From an uncultured Alphaproteobacteria bacterium (GTDB taxonomy: Bacteria; Pseudomonadota; Alphaproteobacteria; Caulobacterales; Caulobacteraceae), in the NCBI GenBank assembly GCA_903892305.1, contig CAITHQ010000225.1:1-47633 (forward strand): a DNA stretch of 47,633 nt, in the 5' to 3' direction. Positions within the stretch are counted from its first letter, which is position 1; each line of letters begins with the position of its first letter. The notes beneath the pieces were generated by a model, which saw only the letters and a list, made by a program, of their open reading frames with translations, was not told where the DNA came from and did not search any database. A program made the position numbers and the translations under genes. Shown here piece after piece: positions 22,249-26,196 of the stretch.

Positions 22249-23397
22249 TCACGCAAGAGCGAGACGACCGGTCAGCCAATTCAACACAAGTCGACCGGCA
22301 GGGGTTGCCCTAAGTCGATCTGAGTCTGGGACGAGGAGGCCCGAGTTAGTCAAGGTGCGGACTTCCGCGCTGTGGGGATGCAGGTCGAGGGCGGCCAGGT
22401 CTGAATAGGCGACCCCCTGGACAATTCGCAGGCCTGACAAGAGGCGCTCTTCGGCCATAGCAATCGGGCTGAGACTTTCAGACTCCGCAACCCCAAGGCC
22501 CGTCAGGCCCACCCGCTCAATATAGGCTTTTGGGGTAAGGGCTGCGATCGTGGCCTGCCGCGCGCCGCCCCGTGTGATCCGTCCATGCGCCCCCGGACCA
22601 ATCCCCAGATAGTCTTCGCCCTGCCAATAGACGAGATTGTGCCGAGATTGATGATCGGCCCCGCGGGCATGGTTGGAGACTTCATAGGCTTCAAACCCAG
22701 CCTGACAGAGAATGTCCTGGGTCGCTTCATAGAGGTCTGCCGCGAGATCTGGCCCAGGAGGGGTCAGACGCCCGCGCCCAACAGCCCGCTCAAAAGCTGT
22801 CCCAGCCTCAATGGTCAGCTGATAGGGCGAGATGTGCTGAGCGCCGAGCTTGAGCGCAGCGTCAAGTTCGGCGGCCCACATGTCCACGGTCTGGTTTGGT
22901 CGGGCATAGATCAGATCAATCGACAGACGCGGGAAGATGCTGGCGGCCAGCTGGGCTGCCCTCTGGCCCTCTTCGGCGGTATGATCGCGACCCAGGACCT
23001 TCAAGTCCTGATCATTGAGCGCCTGCAAGCCTAAAGACAGACGATTGACGCCTGCGCCTTGGAATGCCTGAAACTTCGCAGCCTCGGCATCGGTAGGATT
23101 CGCCTCGAGGGTGACTTCTAGGTTTGACGCACCTGGCCACAGGCCTTGGCAGGTCTCAATGATTTCGGCGACCCATTCGGGTGCCATCAAGGAGGGCGTT
23201 CCACCGCCGAAAAACACCGATACCAGGGTTCTCGGTCCCAGACTGGCAGCCTGGGTCTCAAGGTCTTTCAGAATGGCGGTCTTGAGACTAGCGCCTTGAT
23301 CTTCACGCCCCCGGTGCCGGTAAACATTGAAGTCGCAATAGGGGCAGATCCGCGCGCAGAACGGCCAGTGGATATAGATGCCGAGGGCCGGACTCAA
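22249..23397 (-). CDS. hemW: Radical SAM heme chaperone HemW
   Basis: HemW is a radical-SAM protein related to oxygen-independent coproporphyrinogen oxidase but acting as a heme-insertion chaperone. The 382-aa product has the CX3CX2C cluster motif at Cys14, Cys18 and Cys21 ([13 protein letters not shown]) and [10 protein letters not shown]. It lacks the extra N-terminal region of true HemN, which supports the HemW call. The start overlaps the rdgB stop by 4 bp. The rdgB-hemW adjacency is widely conserved in proteobacteria. Confidence 0.94.
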
Positions 23398-23993
23398 AGT
23401 ATGGCGGCCCGGAGCTGGGCGAAGGCAAGCGCGCGATGGCTCATCGCGTCCTTCTTAATCGGATCCATTTCCCCAAAGGTTTGGCTTTCGCCCTTGGGTA
23501 CAAAGATCGGGTCATAGCCAAAGCCACGATCCCCGCGGGCCGGGAAGACCACGTCCCCGTCTAAACGACCCTCGACCACCACTGCCGGCCCCTCAGGCCA
23601 GGCCACGGCTAGGGCACAGGTGAACCAGGCGCTGGACTCTGAAGTACCCGCAGCACGCAAGTCCTGCTCGACCCTCGCCATGGCCAGACTGAAGTCCTTG
23701 GTCTCGCCAGCCCACCGGGCCGAATAGATTCCCGGTGCACCGCGAAGGGCTGTGACCGAAAGTCCTGAATCATCAGCTAGGGCAATGAGGCCACTGGCGC
23801 GCGCCGCCGCCCGGGCCTTCAGAAGGGCATTGCCCTCAAACGTGGTTTCGGTTTCCTCTGGCTCTGGCAGGCCCAAGGCTCCGGCTGTCACCAAGTCGAA
23901 GCGATTTTCAAGGATTTCAGCCAACTCGCGGGCCTTGCCTGGATTGTGGGTCGCCACAACGATTCGGGTGCCGGGCTGCAGGATCAATGACAT
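23394..23993 (-). CDS. rdgB: XTP/dITP diphosphatase (RdgB/HAM1)
   Basis: RdgB hydrolyses dITP, ITP and XTP to keep deaminated purines out of DNA and RNA. The 199-aa length is normal. It shows [17 protein letters not shown] near the N-terminus, LADDSGLSV, and the C-terminal [13 protein letters not shown] and MSHRALAF. It heads the minus-strand series. In Caulobacter-type genomes rph is normally its neighbour; here the ~1.5-kb microprotein island lies between them. A TGC-rich palindrome (24039-24050) sits about 45 bp upstream of its start, so it may share control with the island. Confidence 0.96.
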
Positions 23994-24038
23994 GTCGAAC
24001 TCCAGGGATCAGACACCAATCTAATGGGTCGCACCCGA

Positions 24039-24050
24039 TGCTGCATTGCA
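24039..24050. promoter_or_regulatory. TGC-palindrome site 1
   Basis: TGCTGCATTGCA, followed by AAAA, lies 46 bp upstream of the rdgB start and ~150 bp upstream of the first microprotein. It is identical in core to site 4 at 25267-25282. It could control rdgB, the divergent microprotein, or both. Confidence 0.5.
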
Positions 24051-24163
24051 AAATTGTAATTTCATTGCGTAAGTTTAATATCGAAAAACAATAAAAATAT
24101 GGATCGAAAAGCGATGTGGAGCTATTGAATCTCTCCATCGGAGGCATATGTCTCCCCCATAAT

Positions 24164-24178
24164 TGCTGCATCGCAGCA
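24164..24178. promoter_or_regulatory. TGC-palindrome site 2 (CTGC-N3-GCAG)
   Basis: TGCTGC-ATC-GCAGCA is a perfect 6-bp inverted repeat with a 3-bp centre, 23 bp upstream of the first microprotein start. It contains CTGC-N3-GCAG, the form reported for the polyhydroxybutyrate-sensing repressor PhaR. A CATAAT hexamer at 24159 overlaps it and could be a -10 element. Confidence 0.6.
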
Positions 24179-24201
24179 TTTTTAACCTACGGAGATATCT
24201 G

Positions 24202-24309
24202 ATGTTTAGTCCTTTTATGACCCTTATGGATCGTGTGACCATGGCCCTTGTGGTCGTTCTGGCCGCTATTCCAACCCTGGCGATCGCCGTTAACAGCTTG
24301 ATGGCCTAG
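24202..24309 (+). CDS. Unlisted 35-aa membrane microprotein
   Basis: An open frame of 35 codons plus stop, too short for usual gene callers. ATG at 24202 has GGAGA at 24191-24195, a good distance for a ribosome-binding site. The product begins MFSPFMTLMDRVTM and continues as one hydrophobic helix of about 20 residues (ALVVVLAAIPTLAIAV) with a short polar end. This predicts a single-span inner-membrane peptide. It lies just downstream of the perfect TGC-palindrome at 24164. I know of no named family. A toxin-like peptide, a membrane regulator or a structural small protein are all possible; the good ribosome site and the operator are the evidence that it is real. Confidence 0.6.
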   Translation: MFSPFMTLMDRVTMALVVVLAAIPTLAIAVNSLMA

Positions 24310-24407
24310 ATCAAGGTCGGAGTGGCTCGAATCCAAACCCGTTTGAAGGCTGTTAAAGTCCAGCTATCGAGGTTTGTGCCGCTGGATTCGCCTGGGGGAG
24401 ATTGGAC

Positions 24408-24947
24408 ATGCAGTTGATGCGCACCCTCGGGCCCGGCTCGATTTCCAGCCTGCTGAAAATCATCCTCGATGTCGTTTATGTGGCTCTTTGGATCGGAATT
24501 GGTGCCGTAGGCCTTGGAGCCCTAAGCGCCCTCCTACTTAGCTTTAATCCAGACCTCCTGGGCAGCTTCACGATGAACTTCAATGGCGACAAGCTGGTGC
24601 GCAAGTGGCCTGCGATTATCGCCCTGCTGATCACAGTGTCTTTTTACCTAGCGGGCATACTTGTCATCGTCAGTCGCCTGCGCAGGATCTTCGCCACCCT
24701 CATGGCTGGAGATCCCTTTCAACCCGACAATGTGTCCCGGCTTCGGGTCATTGGGCTGGCCCTGGCGGCTTTGGAGCTCATCCGATACGCGCTTTGGGGG
24801 CTTAGCCTCTGGGCAATCCCAGGCGAGACCCGGGTCGGCCCGACCCTGTCGACCACACCCTGGTTCTCTGTGCTTGTGGTCTTCGTTCTGGCAGAGGTAT
24901 TCCGAGAAGGTGCCAGACTGCGGCGCGAAGCTGAGCTGACCATCTAG
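24408..24947 (+). CDS. DUF2975 membrane protein
   Basis: A 179-aa protein with four predicted membrane helices (about residues 15-45, 65-88, 108-130, 147-165). The segment RIFATLMAGDPFQPDNVSRL (ending RLRVIG) is the DUF2975 hallmark. The frame opens at a TTG at 24402, but GGGGGAG at 24394-24400 is correctly spaced only for ATG 24408. DUF2975 proteins are usually paired with a small YozG-like Xre regulator, as here, 2 bp downstream. The biochemical role is unknown; the pair may sense a membrane or cell-state cue. It lies inside the island that interrupts rdgB-rph. Confidence 0.85.
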   Translation: MQLMRTLGPGSISSLLKIILDVVYVALWIGIGAVGLGALSALLLSFNPDLLGSFTMNFNGDKLVRKWPAIIALLITVSFYLAGILVIVSRLRRIFATLMAGDPFQPDNVSRLRVIGLALAALELIRYALWGLSLWAIPGETRVGPTLSTTPWFSVLVVFVLAEVFREGARLRREAELTI

Positions 24948-24949
24948 CC

Positions 24950-25183
24950 ATGCACATTCAGATTCAATTGGACCGGATGCTCTTAAAGCGCCGCATGTCG
25001 CTGACAGAGCTCGCCGATCGGGTTGGGGTCACCATCGCCAACTTGTCGATCTTGAAAACCGGCAAGGCCAGAGCTGTTCGGTTTTCGACCCTCGCGGCCT
25101 TGTGTCGGGAATTGGAGTGCCAGCCAGGGGACTTGATTTCCTATGATCCCAGCTCAAGCGAAGAGGATAATGCCTTCGACTAG
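24950..25183 (+). CDS. Small Xre-type (YozG-like) regulator
   Basis: A 77-aa helix-turn-helix protein of the Cro/C1 class. The DNA-binding domain covers residues ~5-66 (LLKRRMSLTELADRVGVTIA, then LSILKTGKARAVRFSTLAALC), followed by ECQPGDLISY, typical of the YozG type, and an acidic tail. It starts 2 bp after the DUF2975 stop and is surely co-transcribed. Such regulators are often autoregulatory and may be held or modulated by the membrane partner. A degenerate TGC-palindrome begins right at its stop codon. Confidence 0.9.
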   Translation: MHIQIQLDRMLLKRRMSLTELADRVGVTIANLSILKTGKARAVRFSTLAALCRELECQPGDLISYDPSSSEEDNAFD

Positions 25184-25196
25184 CCGCGATGCAGCA
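25182..25196. promoter_or_regulatory. TGC-palindrome site 3 (degenerate)
   Basis: AGCCGCGATGCAGCA overlaps the stop codon of the Xre gene. It matches site 2 read on the other strand except in its left end. With a good right half and a weaker left half, it is the least certain of the group. Confidence 0.35.
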
Positions 25197-25226
25197 TTTT
25201 TTTCACGAAATCTGGCGGATGAAGTG

Positions 25227-25255
25227 TTGAATTCATAGGACTCGTTCGCTATGTG
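25227..25255 (+). promoter_or_regulatory. Candidate sigma-70 promoter for microprotein 2
   Basis: TTGAAT (25227-25232) and TATGTG (25250-25255) are separated by 17 bases. The -10 hexamer touches the first of two TGC-palindromes, so a bound protein would block transcription start, expected near 25262. Confidence 0.5.
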
Positions 25256-25282
25256 CACTGCAACATTTGCTGCATTGCACAA
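25252..25282. promoter_or_regulatory. TGC-palindrome site 4, tandem pair
   Basis: TGTGCACTGCAACA (25252-25265) and TTGCTGCATTGCACAA (25267-25282) are inverted versions of one another, about 12 of 15 positions matching. Centres are ~16 bp apart. Their position between the candidate -10 and the ribosome-binding site fits a repressor pair. The motif resembles PhaR targets upstream of phasin genes. Confidence 0.55.
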
Positions 25283-25293
25283 GGATGCTCCCC

Positions 25294-25401
25294 ATGGCCC
25301 GTGCCATTGAAAGCCTGATCGACCGCCTCATGGCACCCTTCGCCGAAGAACTGGCCCGTATGCCCGCCTCGGCCTTTCGCCAATTGCTCGCCTACCGCTA
25401 A
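25294..25401 (+). CDS. Unlisted 35-aa microprotein with its own promoter and terminator
   Basis: A 35-codon gene with a complete transcription unit. AAGGA lies at 25281-25285, 8 bases before ATG 25294; a candidate promoter, twin palindromes and a strong terminator flank it. The product begins MARAIESLIDRLMAPFAEEL, continues ARMPASAFRQLLAYR, and is predicted to be one or two amphipathic helices with no membrane span. ATG 25285 is in frame but lacks spacing for a ribosome site. No named family is known to me. Amphipathic helices of this size can coat surfaces such as storage granules or membranes, which would suit a PhaR-like operator, but that is speculation. The strong terminator argues for real, perhaps high, expression. 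Confidence 0.62.
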   Translation: MARAIESLIDRLMAPFAEELARMPASAFRQLLAYR

Positions 25402-25426
25402 GCTAATCTGGCGGACAAAAAAGAAG

Positions 25427-25456
25427 AGCGACCGGGGCAAACCGGTCGCTTTTTTT
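25427..25456. terminator. Strong intrinsic terminator, probably two-way
   Basis: AGCGACCGG (25427-25435) pairs with CCGGTCGCT (25442-25450) over a 6-base loop GGCAAA and is followed by a run of T on the plus strand, ending microprotein 2. On the minus strand the hairpin is followed by CTTCTTTTTTG, so it should also end rph transcription. Confidence 0.9.
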
Positions 25457-25479
25457 ATGCCCCAATCCCGGAGCCGAAT

Positions 25480-26196
25480 TTAGAGGCCAACTGCCCGCTT
25501 CTGAACTTGGCAAAGGTCTGTAATGCCAGATCTCGCCAGGGCAAACAGGGCCTCGAATTCGGATTGATCAAAGCCCCGCTTCTCACCGGTCGCCTGAATT
25601 TCGACGATGGAACCTGAACCTGTCAGGACGAAATTGGCATCGGCTTCGGCGTTGGAATCTTCCTCATATTCAAGGTCGAGCACGGGTAGGCCATTGTAAA
25701 TGCCGCAGGAAATTGCAGCGACCTGGTCAAGGATCGGGTCCTTGCTGATGACGCCCTCGGACAGCAGCTTCTGCGTCGCCAGACGAAGCGCAACCCAGGC
25801 CCCGGTGATAGCCGCCGTCCGCGTCCCGCCATCGGCCTGAACGACGTCGCAATCGAGGGATATTTGCCGCTCGCCAAGGGCAGTTGGATCGATGATGGCG
25901 CGAAGGGACCGCCCAATAAGCCTTTGTATTTCCTGGGTTCGGCCCGATTGTTTGCCTTCAGAGGCCTCACGGCGACCGCGTGTGTGGGTGGCGCGCGGCA
26001 GCATACCGTATTCGGCCGTGACCCAACCCTGACCCCGACCGCGCATGAAGGGGGGCACCCGCTCTTCTACACTGGCGGTGATCAGCACCTTGGTGTGACC
26101 AAAGCTTGCCAGGCAGGAGCCTTCGGCATAGCGATTCACGTCGGTCTCGAGGGTGACGTTGCGAAGCTGGTCGGCCAGCCGATCTGAAGGGCGCAT
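25480..26196 (-). CDS. rph: Ribonuclease PH
   Basis: RNase PH trims the 3' ends of tRNA precursors using phosphate. The 238-aa product is full length, with [20 protein letters not shown] at the N-terminus, the [20 protein letters not shown] strand, [20 protein letters not shown], and [19 protein letters not shown]. It is divergent from hrcA (79 bp between starts), as in Caulobacter. Its stop lies just left of the strong hairpin at 25427-25456, which can serve as its terminator. Confidence 0.97.

What the first reader, a model, noticed from the sequence alone, without database searches (positions are those of the whole stretch)
23994..25479. Microprotein island inserted between rdgB and rph
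In Caulobacter-type genomes rdgB and rph are neighbours in the block leading to hrcA-grpE-dnaN. Here about 1.5 kb intervenes and holds two 35-codon genes, a DUF2975/Xre pair, four TGC-palindrome sites and a strong terminator. The sequence shows a coordinated set of signals around genes that standard callers miss. A shared regulator for both microproteins is inferred from the shared motif.
Basis: partly seen in the sequence, partly recalled or inferred. Interest (0 to 1): 0.72.

Follow-up and report, generated by a model that had tools for sequence, protein, structure and literature searches.

The report
Bioplastic-controlled microprotein pair in Phenylobacterium
Two tiny conserved genes beside a membrane-protein/regulator pair carry the DNA switches of the bacterium's bioplastic (PHB) regulator, so they look like unrecognised small parts of its carbon-storage machinery.

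Summary
Between rdgB and rph lie two 35-codon ORFs (m1, m2), a DUF2975/HTH_26 pair and a bidirectional terminator. The palindromes match PhaR, the PHB regulator: with a matrix from 17 Sinorhizobium PhaR sites (PMC12542648), the five best positions of the 47.6-kb window all lie in this 1.5 kb. Own-genome phaP and genes that read as phaZ, hbd and scoA carry such boxes too. Across 71 Phenylobacterium loci, 188 of 191 strong boxes lie upstream of m1 or m2; m2 has one within 100 bp in 66 of 68. m2 occurs in 78 of 95 Phenylobacterium genomes and credibly nowhere else searched, and is under purifying selection; m1's coding evidence is weaker. A second motif, ATCG-N5-CGAT, marks 62 of 70 rdgB-DUF2975 gaps and is missing with divergent Xre (one exception), so it is probably the Xre operator.
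Best reading: two PHB-derepressed units, m1-DUF2975-xre and m2, with m2 an amphipathic peptide at granules or on a PHB enzyme. Regulation is well supported by sequence; peptide functions are inferred. 'Shared regulator' is right; 'inserted' is not, this being the genus norm.

The parts
24036..24056 (.). PhaR box A, upstream of the m1 promoter and also 43-63 bp upstream of rdgB
   Evidence: Score 20.3 with a matrix from 17 S. meliloti PhaR sites; conserved TTGCATTGCAAAA in relatives
24080..24092 (.). First ATCG-N5-CGAT-like element (here ATCGAAAAACAAT, one mismatch)
   Evidence: Aligned with the conserved ATCG-N5-CGAT of relatives
24103..24115 (.). Second ATCG-N5-CGAT element (ATCGAAAAGCGAT), candidate Xre operator
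   Evidence: Motif in 62 of 70 rdgB-DUF2975 gaps, 2 in 240,891 bp elsewhere in the same loci
24100..24128 (+). Candidate m1 promoter: -35 TGGATC (TTGATC in relatives), 17 bp, -10 TATTGA
   Evidence: Read from the sequence and conserved in alignment; not reported by the simple promoter scan
24161..24181 (.). PhaR box B, between the m1 promoter and its ribosome-binding site
   Evidence: Score 21.9; perfect palindrome TGCTGCATCGCAGCA, a form found in the whole genome only here and at phaP
24202..24309 (+). m1, 35-codon ORF for a predicted membrane-spanning peptide
   Evidence: 40 homologues above 30 bits all start with ATG, 35 of 40 have exactly 35 codons; maximum 19-residue hydropathy 2.59
24408..24947 (+). 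DUF2975 membrane protein
   Evidence: PF11188, 4.5e-13 (run on 24429-24944)
24950..25183 (+). Xre/HTH_26 regulator, partner of DUF2975
   Evidence: PF13443, 2.3e-20
25179..25199 (.). PhaR box C, distal and weak, at the xre stop codon
   Evidence: Score 11.6; a distal box of score 12 or more at -85 to -140 of the m2 model start in 24 of 68 loci (counted)
25227..25255 (+). m2 promoter: TTGAAT, 17 bp, TATGTG
   Evidence: TTGNNN-N16-18-TATNTG in the 90 bp upstream of m2 in 59 of 68 loci, spacer 17 in 58
25248..25268 (.). PhaR box D, overlapping the -10 of m2
   Evidence: Score 17.6
25265..25285 (.). PhaR box E, directly downstream of box D
   Evidence: Score 22.5, best of the whole window
25294..25401 (+). 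m2, 35-codon ORF for a two-helix peptide, probably amphipathic
   Evidence: 78 of 95 Phenylobacterium genomes; median dN/dS 0.505; AlphaFold2 mean pLDDT 85.6, helices 2-22 and 25-34
25427..25450 (.). Bidirectional terminator shared by m2 and rph
   Evidence: 9-pair stem, T tract on each side

Best explanation
Both microproteins belong to the PHB (polyhydroxybutyrate) regulon. While no polymer is present, PhaR sits on paired boxes over the m2 promoter and on two boxes that flank the m1 promoter, and holds both off. When granules form, PhaR is drawn to the polymer and both units are switched on together with phaP and phaZ. m2 then acts as a very small amphipathic peptide at the granule surface or on a PHB enzyme (a micro-phasin-like role). 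The m1-DUF2975-xre operon makes a membrane peptide, a membrane protein and their own repressor; Xre limits the operon by binding ATCG-N5-CGAT over its -35 region. Shown here by sequence: the conserved ORFs, the PhaR-type boxes with their fixed placement, the presence of PhaR, and the Xre-linked second motif. Inferred: direction of regulation (from other proteobacteria), operon structure, DNA looping at m1, and what the two peptides do.
For: A matrix from 17 published S. meliloti sites ranks the five best window positions inside the finding. Own-genome promoters score alike: phaP 22.1 and 18.8, and genes that read as phaZ 20.9 and hbd 16.1 and scoA 13.1. The exact 12-mer TGCTGCATYGCA occurs at 4 places in the genome, three here and one before the phaZ-like gene. 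In 71 loci, 188 of 191 boxes of score 12 or more lie within 260 bp upstream of m1 or m2; the other 3 lie between rdgB and DUF2975 where m1 was not called. m2 has a box within 100 bp in 66 of 68, two or more in 42. The m2 -10 overlaps box D. Boxes stay with each unit after rearrangement in five genomes. PhaR gene in 76 of 80 genus genomes. m2 coding signal: 97.9% of 1400 pairs with dN/dS below 1. m2 model: two helices. ATCG-N5-CGAT in 62 of 70 gaps; the 8 without it have Xre 62-72% identical to the window's and no m1.
Against: No binding, transcript or protein data. m1 has a box of score 12 or more within 100 bp in only 31 of 53. 17 of 95 genus genomes have PhaR but no m2 match, and 4 m2-positive genomes show no PhaR in the assembly. 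No box of score above 6.5 in the fetched phaR region. Of 15-bp matches with up to two mismatches in the genome there are 55 sites, and 24 for the reversed control pattern, so loose matches are about half background. One locus with Xre at 71% identity (L108) does carry ATCG-N5-CGAT. m1 dN/dS is 0.72 and one shifted frame looks as constrained. The m2 hydrophobic moment is not exceptional (187 of 2000 shuffles reach it for the window's m2, 65 for a homologue). m2 shows no similarity to PhaR by profile (probability 1.3) and no Pfam or NCBIfam match, so granule binding is a guess from regulation and shape.
Confidence: 0.66

Rival explanations
1. The m2 unit (and perhaps m1) is a PhaR-controlled small regulatory RNA, like S. 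meliloti MmgR, and the ORF is incidental or secondary.
For: A PhaR-type box controls mmgR in S. meliloti (PMC12542648 section 18). The m2 transcript would be about 200 nt with a strong terminator, and folds somewhat better than shuffles (z -2.07, terminator included).
Against: m2 keeps frame and length (33-36 codons from the model start to the stop in 68 of 68), with second codon positions most conserved and dN/dS about 0.5. In six loci with an apparent in-frame N-terminal extension the boxes keep their distance to the new start. No Rfam match in the window.
Confidence: 0.12
2. m1 and m2 are PhaR-controlled, but m2 regulates PhaR, PhaC or PhaZ as a soluble partner (for example an anti-repressor or enzyme modulator) rather than coating granules.
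For: Regulation evidence is the same. The invariant residues of m2 in 22 homologues (M1, P15, A17, L20, R22, P24, R29) may suit a specific protein contact better than loose surface coating. PhaR has a MF[ST]PF stretch in all 21 sequences aligned that recalls the LMAPF/LFAPL core of m2.
Against: Profile comparison of m2 and PhaR finds nothing. No partner has been identified.
Confidence: 0.3
3. m1-DUF2975-xre is a self-contained mobile or toxin-like module and the PhaR boxes beside it are only there for m2 and rdgB.
For: m1 is a short hydrophobic peptide beside a regulator; Xre has weak matches to regulators in PADLOC. G003 lacks m1, DUF2975 and xre at this place but keeps m2.
Against: PhaR boxes stay with m1 when it is separated from m2 in G021, G022, G179, G209 and G271. 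rdgB and DUF2975 lie in the same fetched piece in 61 of 71 loci. No defence family for DUF2975 or m2.
Confidence: 0.1
4. The palindromes belong to a regulator other than PhaR that happens to bind a similar sequence.
For: No binding test was possible, and 4 m2-positive assemblies show no PhaR.
Against: The same boxes mark phaP and genes that read as phaZ, hbd and scoA in the same genome and match sites bound by S. meliloti PhaR.
Confidence: 0.05

Closest known systems
PhaR/AniA regulon of alphaproteobacteria (S. meliloti, PMC12542648)
   Same: Same palindrome (published WNWD2NYGCRNYGCRNH2WNW); PHB genes with boxes; small PhaR targets of unknown function exist there (SMc03998, SMc02051)
   Different: m1 and m2 were not credibly found outside Phenylobacterium in the genomes searched; relation to SMc03998 or SMc02051 was not tested
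Phasins (PhaP, Phasin_2 PF09361) and PhaH of Caulobacter crescentus (PMC13052382, passages)
   Same: Helical, probably amphipathic protein under the same boxes as phaP
   Different: 35 residues against about 144 for the own PhaP; no Phasin_2 or other Pfam match; granule binding untested
DUF2975 plus HTH_26 Xre pairs
   Same: Adjacent membrane protein and small Xre regulator, both with Pfam matches. That such pairs are common is recalled, not tested
   Different: Here tied to a third peptide (m1), to ATCG-N5-CGAT sites and to PhaR boxes; the search for DUF2975 listed 2 papers, neither opened
MmgR small RNA of S. meliloti
   Same: Short transcript under a PhaR-type box, linked to PHB
   Different: m2 carries a conserved ORF; no sequence comparison with MmgR was made

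Membership tests
PhaR (PHB) regulon | PhaR-type palindrome at the promoter | tested here: met
   Top five window positions; within 100 bp in 66 of 68 m2 loci and 31 of 53 m1 loci
PhaR (PHB) regulon | PhaR encoded in the same genome | tested here: met
   C70:2161-2340; 76 of 80 genus genomes; not found in 4 m2-positive assemblies
PhaR (PHB) regulon | PhaR binds the promoter and changes expression | not testable with these tools
   Needs binding assay and phaR mutant
Phasin (PHB granule coat protein) | Phasin_2 or other phasin domain | tested here: not met
   No Pfam or NCBIfam match up to E 1 for m2
Phasin (PHB granule coat protein) | Amphipathic helical protein | tested here: inconclusive
   AlphaFold2 helices 2-22 and 25-34; hydrophobic moment reached by 187 and 65 of 2000 shuffles for two homologues
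Phasin (PHB granule coat protein) | Binds PHB granules | not testable with these tools
   Needs granule isolation or tagged peptide
DUF2975/HTH_26 pair | Adjacent genes with PF11188 and PF13443 | tested here: met
Anti-phage defence system | Match to PADLOC models | tested here: not met
   None for DUF2975 or m2; only weak HTH matches for Xre, best E 0.00099; m1 was not scanned
Small regulatory RNA of a described family | Rfam match | tested here: not met
   0 matches in the window at gathering thresholds

The most novel reading that the evidence does not exclude
A genus-specific PHB-status module: m2 is among the smallest granule-associated or PHB-enzyme-regulating peptides, made only when polymer titrates PhaR away, while the m1-DUF2975-xre operon is a membrane switch read out by two inputs at one promoter. 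In it a PhaR tetramer bridges boxes about 9, 10, 11 or 12 helical turns apart around the promoter, and Xre binds inside the loop, so that carbon-store status gates a membrane-peptide system.
Probability: 0.3. Interest if true: 0.8.

Novelty: new variant of a known kind. Interest (0 to 1): 0.6.

Why it matters
PHB granules are a main bacterial carbon store and a bioplastic. Two 35-codon genes under the same switch as phaP, conserved across a genus and without a matching family in Pfam or NCBIfam, would add a micropeptide layer to granule biology. They would also give DUF2975, for which the paper search listed only two papers (neither opened), a physiological context. The case also shows that a regulator's boxes can reveal small genes: in 71 loci nearly every strong box points at one of the two ORFs.

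Tried and rejected
MF[ST]PF stretch of PhaR as kin of the m2 core: seen by eye, profile comparison negative, kept only as a lead. m1 and m2 as relatives of each other: not supported (probability 5.3). m1 as cytochrome oxidase subunit IV: PF07835 at E 0.27 only. m2 outside Phenylobacterium: two weak hits inside long frames in the family (G135, G206, judged from the listing only) and two in the class; the two class loci hold no PhaR box of score above 5.1, rejected. m1 outside the genus: one weak hit in another genus (G254, 3.1e-4), not followed. Loss of m2 together with PhaR: not seen, PhaR is nearly universal, so co-occurrence says nothing. Simple promoter scan: 1 site against 1.1 in shuffles; aligned promoters are more telling. 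For the m2 promoter pattern the only background count is 30 in one strand of the 71 unoriented loci (280,119 bp), which includes those m2 promoters that lie on that strand. Helical phasing of the m1 boxes rests on few spacing classes (94, 105-107, 114, 125-126) and is only suggestive: the concentration is 0.80-0.81 for periods from 10.0 to 10.5 and 0.72 at 11.0.

Rows dropped or chosen before counts: the PhaR matrix uses 17 of the 20 sites that I count in promoters marked Efficient in the published table; three of the four exoH sites were left out, and the acyP row is the reverse complement of the rpoE8 site. The 71 loci were chosen because a search had found m2 or m1 in them, so 68 of 71 for m2 is not a prevalence; prevalence is 78 of 95, of which two are weak (G032, G358). 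PhaR was sought in 80 of those 95 genomes: all 17 without m2 and 63 of 78 with it. dN/dS used homologues above 30 bits, unique sequences and ATG starts only, and pairs with pS between 0.1 and 0.6. m1 in 53 loci counts model scores above 8 bits, some doubtful. The 70 gaps are 61 of the 71 loci plus nine loci added.
Full report
What is there. The window is contig C225 of a 3.19-Mb draft genome. A protein search in named genomes places the finding's second ORF in Phenylobacterium, including P. aquaticum, P. haematophilum and a MAG labelled P. zucineum (15 loci, some labelled only as alphaproteobacteria or bacterium). Between rdgB (23394-23993, minus) and rph (25480-26196, minus) lie, all on the plus strand: m1 (24202-24309), DUF2975 (24408-24947), an HTH_26 Xre regulator (24950-25183) and m2 (25294-25401). 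A stem of nine pairs with T runs on both sides follows (25427-25450).

The microgenes are conserved. m2 has matches in 78 of 95 Phenylobacterium genomes among 348 genomes of the family, and no credible match in the other genera of that search nor, apart from the window's own, in 385 genomes spread over the class (checked). m1 has matches in 48 genus genomes among 299 family genomes, plus one weak match in another genus. In 68 loci the m2 model region has 33 to 36 codons to the stop; 62 have ATG at the model start. The other six can be read from a GTG or ATG 15 codons upstream, in frame, as 51-codon proteins. m2 shows purifying selection: median dN/dS 0.505 and 97.9% of 1400 pairs below 1, with second codon positions least variable. 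In an earlier count on 24 loci, 274 of 276 pairs had pN below pS in the true frame, 189 and 0 of 276 in the two shifted frames. For m1 the median is 0.716 and 79.5% of 633 pairs are below 1, and one shifted frame looks similarly constrained (79 against 82 of 91 pairs). The case for m1 as a gene therefore rests on constant length (35 of 40 have exactly 35 codons), start, ribosome-binding site and position. No Pfam or NCBIfam family matches the window's m1 or m2, nor, in Pfam, one homologue of each, except m1 to PF07835 at E 0.27.

The palindromes are PhaR boxes. A systems study of S. meliloti PhaR (PMC12542648; find passages and section 18 part 1 of 2 read) gives the motif WNWD2NYGCRNYGCRNH2WNW and tested sites. 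From 17 of these sites I built a symmetric matrix. Scanned over the window, the five best positions all fall in the finding: 25265 (22.5), 24161 (21.9), 24036 (20.3), 25248 (17.6) and 25179 (11.6). The next best is 10.5; the mean maximum of 20 mononucleotide shuffles is 10.7 and the largest 13.0. In the same genome the promoters of phaP (22.1, 18.8; Phasin_2), of a PHB depolymerase-like gene (20.9) and of a 3-hydroxybutyryl-CoA dehydrogenase-like gene (16.1) carry boxes, as does a 3-oxoacid CoA-transferase-like gene (13.1). Names other than phaP are my reading of the translations. The exact 12-mer TGCTGCATYGCA occurs at four places in the genome, three of them here and one before the depolymerase-like gene. 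The perfect 15-bp palindrome occurs at two places, phaP and m1; with up to two mismatches there are 55 sites against 24 for the reversed control pattern. PhaR itself is present, next to a divergent thiolase-like gene; no box was found there (best score 6.5).

Conservation of the boxes. One locus from each of 71 genomes was scanned: 278,699 positions gave 191 hits of score 12 or more. All but three lie within 260 bp upstream of m1 or m2, and those three lie in the rdgB-DUF2975 gap of loci where m1 was not called. m2 has a box within 100 bp in 66 of 68 loci, two or more in 42. m1 has one in 31 of 53; the rest are weaker or absent. A distal third m2 box lies 85 to 140 bp upstream of the model start in 24 of 68 (counted). 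A promoter TTGNNN-N16-18-TATNTG lies upstream in 59 of 68 m2 loci, spacer 17 in 58, and in the window its -10 lies within box D. Box placement over the -10 and just after it is what a repressor that blocks the promoter would need.

Two units. In G021, G022, G179, G209 and G271 rdgB-m1-DUF2975-xre is found at one place and m2 with rph, without rdgB, at another; each half keeps its boxes. G003 keeps m2 between rdgB and rph but lacks the three others there. In G028 m2 lies with its boxes in a 10-kb piece without rdgB or rph. So m2 and the m1 operon are separate members of one regulon. G281 has m1 and the ATCG-N5-CGAT sites but no PhaR box of score 8 or more in the gap.

A second operator. Upstream of m1 a conserved stretch holds one or two ATCG-N5-CGAT elements, the second over the -35 region. 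At least one is present in 62 of 70 rdgB-DUF2975 gaps; elsewhere in the same loci there are 2 in 240,891 bp. The eight loci without it have an Xre only 62-72% identical to the window's and lack m1 as well. The match is not perfect: L108, with Xre at 71%, has two such sites; all other measured Xre proteins beside the motif are 75-100% identical. No tree was made, so these eight may reflect few events. The simplest reading is autoregulation by Xre. PhaR boxes flank this promoter at 94, 105-107, 114 or 125-126 bp, near 9, 10, 11 and 12 turns of 10.5 bp. Since PhaR of Bradyrhizobium behaves mainly as a tetramer (PMC10888616, passages), a loop is possible; this is only suggestive.

How it most likely works. 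In Ralstonia-type systems PhaR represses phaP and moves from DNA to the granule when polymer forms (starts of the abstracts of PMC3079617 and PMC3570403). By the same logic m2 and the m1 operon would come on as granules form. m2 is predicted as two helices with a break at P24 (mean pLDDT 85.6). With its control this suggests a granule-surface peptide or a modulator of a PHB enzyme. m1 is predicted to span the membrane (hydropathy 2.59 over 19 residues) and may serve DUF2975. These functional steps are inference.

Against. No experiment exists here. PhaR was found in all 17 m2-negative genomes tested, so m2 is dispensable to a PhaR-bearing cell. Four m2-positive assemblies show no PhaR even with the full protein as query; gaps in drafts are the likely but unproved reason. 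The moment of the m2 helix is not exceptional.

Known or new. The regulon is known; the two peptides and their cassette were not met in the titles and abstract starts listed by the searches, which cover open-licence papers only. Three papers were opened in part (PMC10888616, PMC12542648, PMC13052382). I rate it a new variant of a known kind.

Noticed in passing
L146:1498-1518 (G000:C255:4435-4455): A strong PhaR-type box (21.9) lies between genes that read as lpxC and ftsZ in the own genome, hinting at a link between PHB status and envelope or division.
   Followed up: no
L148:1498-1518 (G000:C14) and L150:1498-1518 (G000:C20): Further PhaR-type boxes (16.8 and 18.3) near an acyl-CoA thioesterase-like/trmD-like pair and upstream of an exbB-like gene.
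   Followed up: partly
L149:1498-1518 (G000:C15): PhaR-type box (13.1) at the start of a gene that reads as 3-oxoacid CoA-transferase subunit A, which fits PHB mobilisation.
   Followed up: partly
PhaR proteins of 21 genus genomes: After the central domain PhaR has a conserved F[DS]xAM[KQ]MF[ST]PF stretch, present in all 21 sequences aligned.
   Followed up: partly
L093, L096, L098, L193, L194, L195: A group in which m2 carries an apparent in-frame N-terminal extension (51 codons), Xre is divergent (62-69%), and m1 and the ATCG-N5-CGAT motif are missing.
   Followed up: partly
window:24036-24056: PhaR box A lies also in the presumed rdgB promoter region, so rdgB may be under PhaR influence.
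   Followed up: no
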